44,524 bases of DNA, from the NCBI GenBank assembly GCA_009379795.1, contig WHTC01000004.1, positions 1-44,524 of the forward strand, in the 5' to 3' direction. Below the pieces are notes generated by a model. It was not told where the DNA came from. It searched no databases and saw only the letters and a program-made list of their open reading frames with translations. Position numbers and translations under genes: made by a program. Each line of letters starts with the position of its first letter. The stretch's first letter is position 1. Shown here piece by piece: positions 41,759 to 44,524 of this stretch. Source of the DNA: Nitriliruptorales bacterium (GTDB taxonomy: Bacteria; Actinomycetota; Nitriliruptoria; Euzebyales; Egibacteraceae).

Positions 41759-42483
41759 AGCTGCTCGGGAGCGGGCACCGCTCCCGGCGACCCAGGCAGC
41801 AGGCCCCCCGCCTCGAGGCGGCGCCGCGCGGTGCCCCGGCGGACCGACTCCTCGGCCACCCGGCGCTGCTCGTAGAAGGACAGAATCTGCAACTCGATCG
41901 ACAGGTCGACCTTGCGCAGGCTCACCCCTGCGGGAACGGTGAGAACGCGGGGGGTGAAATTCAGAATCGAGGAGATCCCCGCGGCGCACAGCCGGTCGGC
42001 CGCCTCCTGGGCCACGGCGCCCGGCACCGCGAGGATCGCGATGGAGATCTCCTCTTCCTTCACGTAGCGCTCGACCTCGTCGAAGTGCCCGATCTCGACG
42101 TCACCGACGACCTGCCCGACCTTGGCCGGGTCCGCGTCCAGCAGGGCGGCGATGCGGAAGCCCCGCTCGGCGAAGCCGCTGTAGTTGGCCAGTGCCTGCC
42201 CGAGGTTGCCGATCCCCACGATGCACACCGCCCAGTCCTGGGTCAGCCCCAACTCGCGGGAGATCTGATGAATCAGGTACTCCACGTCGTAGCCGACGCC
42301 CCTGGTCCCGTACGAGCCGAGATAGGAGAGATCCTTGCGGATCTTCGCGGAGTTCACGCCCGCGGCCATGGCCAGCGCCTCGCTCGAGACCGTGTGAATT
42401 CCCTTCTCGGCCATGTCGACCAACGCCCGAAGATAGACGGGAAGCCTGGTGACACTGGCCTCGGGGATCTGGCGAGACGACAC
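41755..42483 (-). CDS. rex: Redox-sensing transcriptional repressor Rex
   Basis: 242 residues. Winged-helix N-terminus: SVTRLPVYLRALVDMAEKGI, SSEALAMAAGVNSAKIRKDL, SYLGSYGTRGVGYDVEYL. The NAD(H)-binding domain has VCIVGIGNLGQALANYSGF and LDADPAKVGQ, followed by FTPRVLTVPAGVSLRKVDLS and a C-terminal swapped helix. Rex releases operators when NADH/NAD+ rises, tuning respiration and heme supply. GTG 42483 is chosen because AAGGAGGGG precedes it; in-frame starts exist upstream. First gene of the rex-hem operon, with a good promoter carrying a Rex half-site. Confidence 0.95.
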   Translation of the reverse strand: MSSRQIPEASVTRLPVYLRALVDMAEKGIHTVSSEALAMAAGVNSAKIRKDLSYLGSYGTRGVGYDVEYLIHQISRELGLTQDWAVCIVGIGNLGQALANYSGFAERGFRIAALLDADPAKVGQVVGDVEIGHFDEVERYVKEEEISIAILAVPGAVAQEAADRLCAAGISSILNFTPRVLTVPAGVSLRKVDLSIELQILSFYEQRRVAEESVRRGTARRRLEAGGLLPGSPGAVPAPEQL

Positions 42484-42529
42484 CTGCGGCTGCCCCTCCT
42501 TCTCCTGTCGGAACCCGCCGGCCGGCGTT

Positions 42530-42564
42530 TTCACAAGGGTACGTGGCTGGCGGGGGCTCCTCAA
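42530..42564 (-). promoter_or_regulatory. rex-hem operon promoter with Rex half-operator
   Basis: On the minus strand TTGAGG (42559-42564) and TACCCT (42536-42541) are spaced by exactly 17 bases. TTGTGAA (42530-42536), the Rex half-site sequence, begins at the last base of the -10 box. The second half-site is not recognisable. Position fits autorepression. Confidence 0.55.
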
Positions 42565-42840
42565 CGCCGTTGATCAACCCGCGGAGTGTGCGGTCGCAGG
42601 CGACGACCACACGGTTGCCCCGGTCGAGGGCGCGGATGCTCGGGTCGTCGCTAACCGTGCGAGCGATGAGGTCGGCGATCGCCTCAGCGAAGCGCTGGGC
42701 TTCGGCCGCGATCTCGGCAATTAACGGTCGGCGTCGTCGCCGAGGAGAAACTCGACGGCGCGAATGTCTTCCCACAGCCAGAATTCGTCCGCGTCCAGCA
42801 TCCCCGCTTCCGCTCCGCCCTGGAGCTCCTGCCGGCTCAC
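42540..42840 (-). pseudogene. Gene remnant(s) between rex and the IS110 element
   Basis: A 39-codon frame (GTG 42840 to TAA 42721) reads SRQELQGGAEAGMLDADEFW then LWEDIRAVEFLLGDDADR. Immediately after it, in another frame and with no usual start, strongly GC-biased codons continue to about 42540 (AEIAAEAQRFAEAIADLIAR, then SIRALDRGNRVVVACDRTLR, GLINGVEEPPP). Either two overlapping small genes, or one gene broken by a frameshift. Not recognised. The rex promoter lies in its 3' part. Confidence 0.35.
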
Positions 42841-42889
42841 TGTGCACCATCCCGGGGTCAGCGGTCATGGGGCTGCTGATGCACCCTGT

Positions 42890-43050
42890 GTGCCTGCCGG
42901 GCCATCGCCAGCGTGGCTTGCCCTTGGAGGGCCGGCATGAGTGATGCGAGGTCCGGCGGCCCGGGACGTGCCAAGCGGCGACAGGGCTGAGCGCCACCGA
43001 GCGCCGATCAGTGAGCGACCGACGAGCACGTCCCAGCACCGCCGGGTGCC
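42890..43050 (+). ncRNA. Predicted IS110 bridge RNA
   Basis: Two consecutive stem-loops with internal loops. Target-binding loop: outer stem CCGGGCC (42897-42903)/GGCCCGG (42958-42964), apical hairpin GCCCT-TGG-AGGGC (42920-42932). Left guide GTGGCT (42913-42918) resembles the left target GGGGCT (42869-42874, 5 of 6). Right guide GCATGAGT (42935-42942) is the exact complement of right target ACTCATGC (44327-44334). Donor-binding loop: stem GGGACGTGC (42963-42971)/GCACGTCCC (43026-43034). Left guide ACAGGGCT (42981-42988) is identical to the right end plus core (44319-44326). Right guide ATCAGT (43007-43012) pairs with GCTGAT (42875-42880). The two outer stems share two bases (42963-42964), so they compete at their junction. 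RNA ends are approximate. Confidence 0.72.
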
Positions 43051-43081
43051 TGCCAGCTGCGCCAACAGCCAGGAGGCACAC

Positions 43082-44317
43082 ATGCAGCATGACACGACCG
43101 CGCTCATTGGAGGAGTCGACTGGGCGACCGACACCAACGAGCAGTGCATCGTCGACGCCACCGGCTCCATCGTGGCGCGGCGCAACACCACCCACGATGC
43201 CGCGGGCATCCGCCGGCTCGTCGAGGGCTTCGTCCGCCACGGCGTGCAGCAGGTCGCGATCGAGCGGCCCGACGGCCCGGTCGTGGACGCACTGCTGACC
43301 GTTGGCATCGAGGTGGTGGTGATCACTCCGCGGCAGGTCAAGCACCTGCGCGCGCGTTACAGCGCGGCGGGCAACAAGGACGACCGCTTCGACGCCTACG
43401 TGCTGGCCGATGTGCTGCGCACCGACGGCCACCGGCTCACCCCACTGACCCCCGACAGTCCACAAACCCTGGCGCTGCGCTCGGCGGTGCGCGCCCGCAC
43501 CGACTTGGTCGAGGCGCGGGTGGCGCTGTGCAACCAGCTGCGCGCGCACCTGCGTGTGGTCTTCCCCGCCGTGGTCGGGCTGTTCGCCGACCTCGACTCG
43601 CCGATCAGCCTGACGTTTCTTGCCCGCTTCCCCTCGGTCGACAAGGCCGCCTGGCTCGGCCAGCGACGCCTCGGCGCGTGGCTGGCCGCCAACGGCTACT
43701 GCGGTCGCCAACCCGCCCGCGTGCTGCTCGAACGACTCCAGACCGGCCCCGAGGGGCTGACCGGCGATGCGGCCGCCGCCGCGGCGCACACGACCCTGGC
43801 CTACGTGGCGACGCTCATCGCGGTCCGCGGTCAGATCGCTGCCCTCGAAGCCCAGATCCGCGAGCAGCTCGCCCTGCACCCCGACGCCCACGTGTTCACC
43901 TCGCTGCCGCGCAGCGGACAGGTCCGTGCCGCAAAGCTGCTGGCAGAGATCGGCGACGCCCGTGGCCGCTTCCCCACCGAGGCGTCCCTGGCCGCCCTCG
44001 CCGGCGCCGCACCCTCCACCCGCCAGTCCGGCCGCCACCACGTCGTGACGTTCCGCTGGGCGTGCGACAAGAAGCTGCGCGATGCGGTCATCGACTTCGC
44101 CGCCGACAGCCGCCGAGCCAGCCCCTGGGCCGCCGCCATCTACGACCGCCACCGCACCACCGGCAAAACCCACCAACACGCCACCCGCATCCTCGCCCGC
44201 GCCTGGCTGCGCGTCATCTGGCGCTGCTGGCAAGACGGCACCGGCTATGACTCCGCTCGCCACGGCGGAGCCCGACCCTTCCTCACCCCGAACGAAGCAA
44301 TCGACCAGGCGGCTTGA
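43082..44317 (+). CDS. IS110-family transposase (DEDD bridge-RNA-guided recombinase)
   Basis: 411 residues. RuvC-like N-terminal domain with DEDD residues D13 (GVDWATDTNEQ), E61 (VAIERPDGPVVDA), D101 and D104 (NKDDRFDAYVLAD); helical middle; C-terminal Tnp domain with the serine-containing stretch AGAAPSTRQSGRHH then VTFRWACDKKLRDAVIDFA, where the family nucleophile serine lies. Full length and uninterrupted, so potentially active. ATG 43082 has AGGAGG upstream; its 5' end directly follows the bridge RNA region. Confidence 0.93.
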   Translation: MQHDTTALIGGVDWATDTNEQCIVDATGSIVARRNTTHDAAGIRRLVEGFVRHGVQQVAIERPDGPVVDALLTVGIEVVVITPRQVKHLRARYSAAGNKDDRFDAYVLADVLRTDGHRLTPLTPDSPQTLALRSAVRARTDLVEARVALCNQLRAHLRVVFPAVVGLFADLDSPISLTFLARFPSVDKAAWLGQRRLGAWLAANGYCGRQPARVLLERLQTGPEGLTGDAAAAAAHTTLAYVATLIAVRGQIAALEAQIREQLALHPDAHVFTSLPRSGQVRAAKLLAEIGDARGRFPTEASLAALAGAAPSTRQSGRHHVVTFRWACDKKLRDAVIDFAADSRRASPWAAAIYDRHRTTGKTHQHATRILARAWLRVIWRCWQDGTGYDSARHGGARPFLTPNEAIDQAA

Positions 44318-44319
44318 CA
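44314..44319 (+). promoter_or_regulatory. Consensus -35 box at the right end of the IS110 element
   Basis: TTGACA, a perfect -35 sequence, overlaps the transposase stop codon and points outward. In IS110-type circles a right-end -35 joined to the left end drives the bridge RNA; here the left-end -10 is not clear. Confidence 0.45.
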
Positions 44320-44400
44320 CAGGGCTACTCATGCGGGCACGCCGCAGGAGTTCCTCACGTCGAGCGCGTAGGTCGTCACCGGTTCCTCGCCGCGTGCCGG

Positions 44401-44524
44401 TCAGTGGCGGCGGGCCTCGCGGATCGCGGCGCGGAGGGTGGCGGTGTCGACCTGGAACTCGGCGATCTCGCGGTCGTCGACGGCGACCACGGGAACGCGC
44501 ACGGTGTAGCGATCGATCAAGGCC
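44401..44524 (-). CDS. Glutaredoxin-like (DUF836) protein, 3' end only
   Basis: Runs off the window; the last 40 residues are visible (ALIDRYTVRVPVVAVDDREI then AEFQVDTATLRAAIREARRH). The cis-proline segment VRVPVVAVDD and the following E-x-x-x-F-x-V-D pattern match the C-terminus of the glutaredoxin-like DUF836 family, whose genes often precede rex-hemA in actinobacteria. The CXXC part is outside the window. The IS110 element stands between this gene and rex. Confidence 0.65.
   Translation of the reverse strand, partial: ALIDRYTVRVPVVAVDDREIAEFQVDTATLRAAIREARRH

What the first reader, a model, noticed from the sequence alone, without database searches (positions are those of the whole stretch)
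42873..44334. Complete bridge RNA with all four guides readable, matching the actual insertion site
The left non-coding end of the IS110 element has two tandem loop structures. Guide segments read from it match what bridge recombination requires: LDG ACAGGGCT equals the right end plus CT core (8/8), RDG ATCAGT pairs with the left end GCTGAT (5 pairs plus one G-U), RTG GCATGAGT is the exact complement of the flank after the right core (8/8; 9/10 when extended), and LTG GTGGCT matches the left flank at 5 of 6. All four converge on the same CT cores. Seen: the matches. Known: the IS110/IS621 bridge RNA mechanism. Inferred: that this copy inserted here using this very RNA.
Basis: partly seen in the sequence, partly recalled or inferred. 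Interest (0 to 1): 0.8.

Follow-up and report, generated by a model that had tools for sequence, protein, structure and literature searches.

The report
Bridge-RNA element aimed at start codons
A jumping gene whose built-in guide RNA aims it at the start codon of a host gene; in its relatives it lands so exactly that a hidden backwards reading frame fits between the host genes on both sides, a link not made in the papers searched.

Summary
The finding is right in kind, wrong at the ends. About 60 relatives and empty sites place the core CTs at 42836-42837 and 44328-44329, not 42873-4 and 44325-6. RTG GCATG-AG is correct. LDG matches 8/8 but stops short of the core. LTG is weak at the real flank (GG plus one G-U), not 5/6.

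Across relatives RTG and LTG covary with each copy's own flanks (0 of 20,000 permutations reach the observed match), the handshake base covaries too, and 33 of 42 RNA pairs show compensatory changes.

With the corrected ends, targets are gene boundaries (RTG-AG start codons, often RTGA stop/start overlaps). In 29 of 40 start-targeting elements an antisense frame begins at the host start codon, crosses transposase and bridge RNA without a stop (about 500 codons), and ends in a TGA made by left end plus core, overlapping a GTG start for the next host gene. This generalises IS900 'hed'. The window copy lost one base there, so its frame runs to 743 codons.

The parts
42836..42837 (+). left core CT (junction of left target and right donor)
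   Evidence: Left limit of homology in relatives at other sites; gap-free empty site.
42838..42842 (+). right-donor sequence CACTG (true left end); on the minus strand it supplies GTG in front of AG
   Evidence: 5/5 pairs with RDG plus core; 52 GTG and 3 ATG of 56 distinct left ends.
42842..42845 (+). site of a 1-base deletion in this copy (CACTG-TGCACC; relatives CACTGGTGCACC); it removes the TGA end of the antisense frame
   Evidence: Alignments; element length is 1 mod 3 here, 2 mod 3 in most relatives.
42857..42880 (+).
   Evidence: Helix 1, 9 of 9 pairs with changes on both sides.
42897..42959 (+). target-binding loop
   Evidence: Helices 2-3, 97.6% and 93.6% of cells paired.
42910..42918 (+). 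left target guide AGCGTGG-CT (core at 42917-42918)
   Evidence: Position by alignment A3; weak match to the window's own flank, significant own-flank matching across 44 relatives.
42935..42941 (+). right target guide GCATG-AG
   Evidence: Pairs 5/5 plus core with CT-CATGC at 44328-44334; +1..+5 own-flank pairing 89-100% against 34-89% with other loci.
42942..42942 (+). handshake-guide base T, pairs with the last left-donor base A (44327)
   Evidence: T-A 33, A-T 14, two exceptions in relatives.
42964..43033 (+). donor-binding loop
   Evidence: Helices 4-7, 96-99% of cells paired.
42981..42988 (+). left donor guide ACAGGGCT
   Evidence: 8/8 with 44319-44326; pairing stops one base before the core.
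43009..43015 (+). true right donor guide CAGTG-AG
   Evidence: Pairs with CT-CACTG at 42836-42842; CTGACTG left ends carry CAGTCAG, CTCATTG left ends carry CAATGAG.
43082..44317 (+). IS110-family recombinase, 411 aa, intact
   Evidence: Pfam and NCBIfam; aligns with IS621 structure 8wt6 with the NKxDxxDA motif and the C-terminal SG serine.
44314..44319 (+). TTGACA, -35-like half at the right end; joined to the left end in the circular form it would form a promoter
   Evidence: TTGACA in 45 of 48 RE-LE joins; promoter function inferred from IS621.
44319..44327 (+). left-donor sequence ACAGGGCTA (true right end)
44328..44329 (+). right core CT
44330..44334 (+). right target CATGC; its minus strand is the ATG start of the split 39-codon host gene
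   Evidence: Window MSRQELQ... / uninterrupted homologue MNREELQ....
42101..44332 (-). hed-like antisense frame from the host ATG through right end, transposase and bridge RNA; 743 codons here because of the 1-base deletion
   Evidence: sister element L002 has 498 codons ending exactly at the left core.

Best explanation
The window holds an IS110-group insertion sequence (CT cores at 42836-42837 and 44328-44329, about 1.49 kb) that moves by bridge-RNA-guided recombination: the left-end RNA binds the circular donor through LDG and RDG and the target through LTG and RTG, and the recombinase exchanges strands at CT. In this clade the RTG spells a start or stop/start context (NNRTG-AG), so copies land on gene starts and stop/start overlaps, reading opposite to the host genes. 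The right junction keeps the upstream gene's RTGA. The left end supplies a new GTG in frame for the downstream gene. Between them runs a stop-free antisense frame (hed type) that begins at the host's own start codon and normally ends in a TGA overlapping that GTG. Shown by sequence: boundaries, guides, covariation, target class, open frame and its exact end in relatives. Inferred: RNA expression, that this copy used this very RNA, translation of the antisense frame, and its purpose (most likely to keep ribosomes moving through the insert and hand them to the downstream gene, so that insertion in an operon does little harm).
For: Family and catalytic domains. Corrected ends from relatives and empty sites. 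RNA fold: 95.9% of cells paired against 84.1% in shuffles, 33 of 42 pairs with change on both sides. Own-flank covariation of RTG and LTG 0/20,000; handshake base. Targets: RTG-AG sites 23/34 at a start or TGA stop against 113/521 control sites (p 4.5e-8); CTG-AG sites 9/11 at stops against 22/215 (p 2.5e-7). Antisense frame: 29 of 40 start-targeting elements end in TGA at -2 from the left core, with 18 distinct element lengths, all 2 mod 3; none of the 17 others does. Left-end minus frames open in 35, 3 and 4 of 38 for the hed frame and the other two; codons TTA+CTA+TCA 15/15,020 against 44/4,722 in the CTG/stop group. Elements outside the 57 used to see the pattern agree: L092, L094, L100, L141 start-type and ending at -2; L097 CTG and closed.
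Against: No RNA or protein data. LTG matches this copy's own left flank poorly. LDG does not pair with the core. The window copy has lost the exact TGA end. Co-loss of start-targeting and open hed on independent branches is only 3-4 against 0 (sign test p 0.125-0.6), and 8 of 40 start-targeting elements have a closed frame. Aligned-antisense frames of GC-rich genes are open more often than others. Amino-acid constraint on Hed is not established; no Pfam domain.
Confidence: 0.85

Rival explanations
1. One reading: cores at 42873-42874 and 44325-44326, RDG ATCAGT, LTG 5/6, and ACTCATGC all host target.
For: LDG ACAGGGCT runs 8/8 into GGG-CT, so a donor core there would give a full-length LDG pairing.
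Against: 39 bp claimed as left flank are conserved in unrelated insertion sites; the empty site needs no extra ACT; RDG covariation follows CTCACTG/CTGACTG/CTCATTG.
Confidence: 0.02
2. The antisense open frame is a by-product of codon usage in GC-rich genes, with no selection.
For: It is the codon-aligned antisense frame, where only TTA, CTA and TCA close it, and these are rare at high GC; phylogenetic sign test not significant.
Against: It also stays open through the non-coding left end (35/38 against 3 and 4/38 in the other frames), ends at one exact base in elements of 18 lengths, and the stop/CTG-targeting sister group shows many closing codons at similar use of other A-ending codons (the set was chosen for open frames).
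Confidence: 0.15
3. Hed is a functional protein rather than a translated pass-through.
For: IS900 literature names hed as a gene; fourfold sites in hed-open pairs are slightly more conserved than expected at 50-70% identity (excess 0.08-0.10 against 0.01-0.03 in the CTG group).
Against: At 80-90% identity the excess is not larger than in the CTG group (0.15 against 0.19); no domain match; compatible with mere stop avoidance.
Confidence: 0.3
4. The left-end RNA is not used by this copy: an immobile remnant, with the RTG match a chance.
For: Single copy in the genome, weak LTG, 1-base deletion in the left end.
Against: Intact recombinase; RTG, RDG, LDG and handshake base all match; the deletion lies outside the folded RNA core.
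Confidence: 0.1

Closest known systems
IS621 and its bridge RNA (IS110 family; PMC11208160, PMC11208158)
   Same: Left-end RNA with 5' stem-loop, target and donor loops, four guides plus handshake bases, CT core, TTGACA at the right end rejoining the left end in the circle.
   Different: Recombinase 411 aa against about 326; only a remote sequence match; LDG stops before the core; RTG reads NNRTG-AG, aimed at gene starts instead of REP elements; antisense frame.
IS900 of Mycobacterium avium subsp. paratuberculosis (PMC8141618, citing Doran et al. 1997)
   Same: Targets a start codon plus ribosome-binding-site motif (CATGNNNNNNTCTCCTT); antisense ORF 'hed' spans the element and has no start of its own.
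   Different: Reported without guide RNA; the exact TGA/GTG overlap at the left junction and the split into start- and stop-targeting guide groups were not found in the papers searched. IS900 itself was not analysed here.
IS110/IS1111 seekRNA elements (PMC11187229)
   Same: Non-coding region upstream of tnp; transposase length in the 395-455 aa range of the IS110 subgroup; that paper also warns that element ends are often misplaced.
   Different: No start-codon target class or antisense frame found in a term search of that paper.

Membership tests
IS110 family, IS110 subgroup | DEDD RuvC-like domain plus Transposase_20 domain with catalytic serine | tested here: met
   PF01548 positions 2-155/155, PF02371 2-86/87; NF033542 above cutoff; serine and D-motif align with IS621.
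IS110 family, IS110 subgroup | Long non-coding left end upstream of tnp, short right end | tested here: met
   244 nt between the left core and tnp; right non-coding end about 10 nt.
Bridge RNA (IS621 type) | 5' stem-loop, target loop and donor loop supported by covariation | tested here: met
Bridge RNA (IS621 type) | LTG and RTG match each copy's own target | tested here: met
   RTG and LTG 0/20,000 permutations; for the window itself RTG met, LTG weak.
Bridge RNA (IS621 type) | LDG and RDG match the donor junction | tested here: met
   RDG 5/5 plus core; LDG 8/8. RDG too conserved for a permutation test.
Bridge RNA (IS621 type) | Core dinucleotide included in all four guide pairings | tested here: not met
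   LDG ends GGGCT-GAG against donor GGGCTA-CT; the other three include the core. A detail of IS621, taken as descriptive and not as the family criterion.
Bridge RNA (IS621 type) | Handshake bases after each AG | tested here: met
   Target loop T-A/A-T in 47 of 49; donor loop C-G 45, T-A 1, G-C 1 of 56.
Bridge RNA (IS621 type) | RNA expressed, binds recombinase, directs recombination | not testable with these tools
   Needs bench work.
hed-type antisense ORF (IS900) | ORF on the opposite strand spanning the element, without its own start codon, started by host signals | tested here: met
   44332 to 42101 minus; open from the host ATG through the element; exact end lost in this copy, present in sister L002.

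The most novel reading that the evidence does not exclude
A whole clade of actinobacterial IS110 elements uses its bridge RNA to find stop/start overlaps of operon genes and inserts there as a frame-exact antisense cistron, rebuilding a 4-base stop/start overlap at both junctions so that translation (and hence transcription) runs through the insert into the downstream gene.
Probability: 0.55. Interest if true: 0.78.

Novelty: new variant of a known kind. Interest (0 to 1): 0.64.

Why it matters
It ties two separate literatures together: the IS900 observation that the element seeks translation starts and carries an antisense ORF, and the bridge-RNA mechanism. If right, the start-codon preference is written in the guide RNA. 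The element's left end, core and length would then be tuned so that three overlapping layers (transposase, guide RNA, antisense frame) coexist and the host operon is spared. It also gives a practical rule for placing the ends of IS110 elements, which go wrong when read by eye, and natural examples of guide programming toward start and stop codons.

Tried and rejected
Model B, core GGG-CT with ACTCA as target (rejected by gap-free empty sites; the 3-base difference keeps frame, so coding alone could not decide). Rfam, gathering and permissive: no match. Contig C278, 100% identical to the window's last 141 bp, is an assembly overlap, not an empty allele. Start-targeting/hed correlation by independent pairs: too few pairs. 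Hed amino-acid constraint from fourfold sites: inconclusive. Pfam on Hed: nothing. Shine-Dalgarno motif before the host RTG: 16/43 against 8/43 control, weak. RDG permutation uninformative because RDG hardly varies. Folding of the window sequence alone is only modestly better than shuffles (z -1.84).

Full report
What was checked. The element region was read and searched. The recombinase frame 43082-44317 (411 aa) has both IS110 domains, is above NCBI's cutoff for 'IS110 family RNA-guided transposase', and aligns with IS621 (8wt6) through the NKxDxxDA motif and the C-terminal SG serine. The genome, a fragmented assembly of 511 contigs, holds one copy. The closest relatives found by name are MAGs labelled Nitriliruptorales and Egibacteraceae.

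Boundaries. One scan gave 80 relatives at other sites. BLAST of the window's left 'flank' against them, not expected to match anything, matched 40 bp ending at 42874 next to the relatives' own elements. Alignment shows homology beginning at CTCACTGG on the left and ending at GGGCTACTCA on the right. CT can be cut in two ways: core A-CT-CA (model A) or GGG-CT with ACTCA in the target (model B). A family genome (G010) carries the uninterrupted site: CTCCTCCCGG-TT-CATCCTGGCACGC, gap-free against the window's CTCCTGCCGG-CT-CATGCGGGCACGC. Four homologues of the HAD gene hit by L091 align gap-free at the same place. In L102 (the copy of L036) the joined flanks read through a conserved Transposase_20 motif, RHRLNRGGD, with no extra residue. 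Model A stands, with cores 42836-42837 and 44328-44329.

Guides. With those ends the guides are LTG AGCGTGG-CT (42910-42918), RTG GCATG-AG (42935-42941), LDG ACAGGGCT (42981-42988) and RDG CAGTG-AG (43009-43015). The base after each AG is the handshake guide of IS621 (PMC11208158). The table for 57 relatives is. Own-flank pairing for RTG +1..+6 is 5.03 against 3.04 with other loci; LTG -1..-7 is 4.00 against 2.88; neither was reached in 20,000 permutations. Examples: L053 GGGACG-AG with CT-CGTCCC; L057 AATAGG-AG with CT-CCTATC; L031 LTG CCGGCCCG and L043 LTG CGCGAGCG identical to their left flanks over 8 bases. Handshake base and last donor base: T-A 33, A-T 14, two exceptions. RDG follows the left end: CAGTGAG with CTCACTG, CAGTCAG with CTGACTG, CAATGAG with CTCATTG. 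For the window: RTG 5/5, RDG 5/5, LDG 8/8, handshake paired, LTG 2 of 7 plus one G-U. The LDG match ends one base before the core, unlike IS621.

RNA fold. RNAalifold on 57 left ends gives a 5' stem-loop and two loops with guides on either side. Counted against controls: 95.9% of cells paired (84.1% shuffled; 33-42% when partners are slid), 33 of 42 pairs with change on both sides, 304 compensatory cells against 78. The structure was derived from the same alignment, which favours it; the slid and shuffled controls still leave chance very unlikely.

Where the elements land. On the strand opposite to tnp most sites read NNRTG-AG. By open frame and codon-position GC pattern, RTG-AG insertion sites are at a gene start (17/34) or a TGA stop (19/34), either in 23/34, against 97, 26 and 113 of 521 ATGAG/GTGAG sites in the same flanks (p 4.5e-8). 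A second group with CTG-AG sites is at stops in 9/11 against 22/215 (p 2.5e-7). The window's own site fails that automatic test because the gene is only 39 codons, but the gene is conserved with the same start in G010: MSRQELQGGAEAGMLDADEFWLWEDIRAVEFLLGDDADR and MNREELQAGADAGMLDPDEFWLWKDIRAVEFLLGDDVER, 31 of 39 identical by eye.

The antisense frame. From the host RTG the minus strand is open through right end, transposase and bridge RNA in nearly all start-targeting elements. Among 40 distinct ones, 29 end in a TGA whose TG is the left end and whose A is the left core, overlapping the GTG that the left end places before AG...CACCAGTGAG|C. Their lengths (1373 to 1592 bp, 18 different values) are all 2 mod 3; three others read through (window, L003, L058); eight are closed. 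None of 17 elements with other targets has the exact end. In the left end, which codes for no known protein, the hed frame is open in 35/38 and the other two in 3 and 4. Closing codons TTA, CTA and TCA are 15 of 15,020 in start-targeting transposases and 44 of 4,722 in the CTG group. A codon-family control used a set picked for open frames and is only supportive. Elements not used to see the pattern agree: L092, L100, L094 and L141 open and ending at -2; L097 with CTG closed. Caution: on the tree, independent contrasts are few (3-4 for, 0 against; not significant), and protein-level constraint is inconclusive.

Reading of the mechanism. Shown: ends, guides, covariation, target class, frame and its end in relatives. 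From established knowledge: IS110 elements form circles, and a bridge RNA pairs donor and target (PMC11208160, PMC11208158). TTGACA at the right end (45 of 48 joins) fits promoter reconstitution. Inferred: at a stop/start overlap the upstream gene keeps its TGA, hed starts at the host RTG, hed stops in GTGA at the left end, and the downstream gene restarts at that GTG. An AGGA-like motif lies upstream of the GTG in 25/56 distinct left ends against 1/56 in a control stretch. The likeliest benefit is that ribosomes cross the insert and reach the next gene. In the window copy a missing G near 42842 abolishes the exact stop, so the frame runs on to 42101.

Comparison. IS900 is the clear precedent for target and antisense ORF (PMC8141618, which gives the motif CATGNNNNNNTCTCCTT and cites Doran et al. 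1997 by title). Term searches of the open library found no paper that links bridge RNA with start codons and no mention in the two main bridge/seekRNA papers. The library lacks most subscription journals, so novelty of the link is a reasonable guess, not a finding.

Noticed in passing
L102 / L036 and L096 / L024: Two relatives with CTGACTG left ends sit in, or next to sequence resembling, the RHRLNRGGD motif of another IS110-family transposase gene; for L102 the joined flanks match Transposase_20. A guide that targets other IS110 elements.
   Followed up: partly
L103 (= L032): Insertion inside a tandem repeat of about 30 bp whose units each contain GGCGG-CT-CACG, the element's own target; uninterrupted units lie beside the element.
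   Followed up: partly
L006, L033, L034 left ends: Left end carries a tandem duplication of about 50 bp (CTCACTGGTGCACCATC...GGTGCACCA) before the bridge RNA.
   Followed up: no
L069, L072, L074, L077, L080, L055, L061: A sister group aims at TGA stop codons (CTGA-G), with RTG GGCTG-AG and an LTG whose core position is not CT; its antisense frame is closed.
   Followed up: partly
L065: LDG ACAGGGCACT includes the core and matches its donor fully, unlike the rest of the clade.
   Followed up: no
window 44384-44524: Last 141 bp are identical to the end of contig C278 of the same genome (reverse), an assembly-graph overlap; the contig continues into a glutaredoxin-like gene.
   Followed up: yes
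L005, L032 (= L101, L103): Two of three copies in one genome have lengths 0 mod 3 and closed hed frames, probably decay or assembly indels.
   Followed up: no
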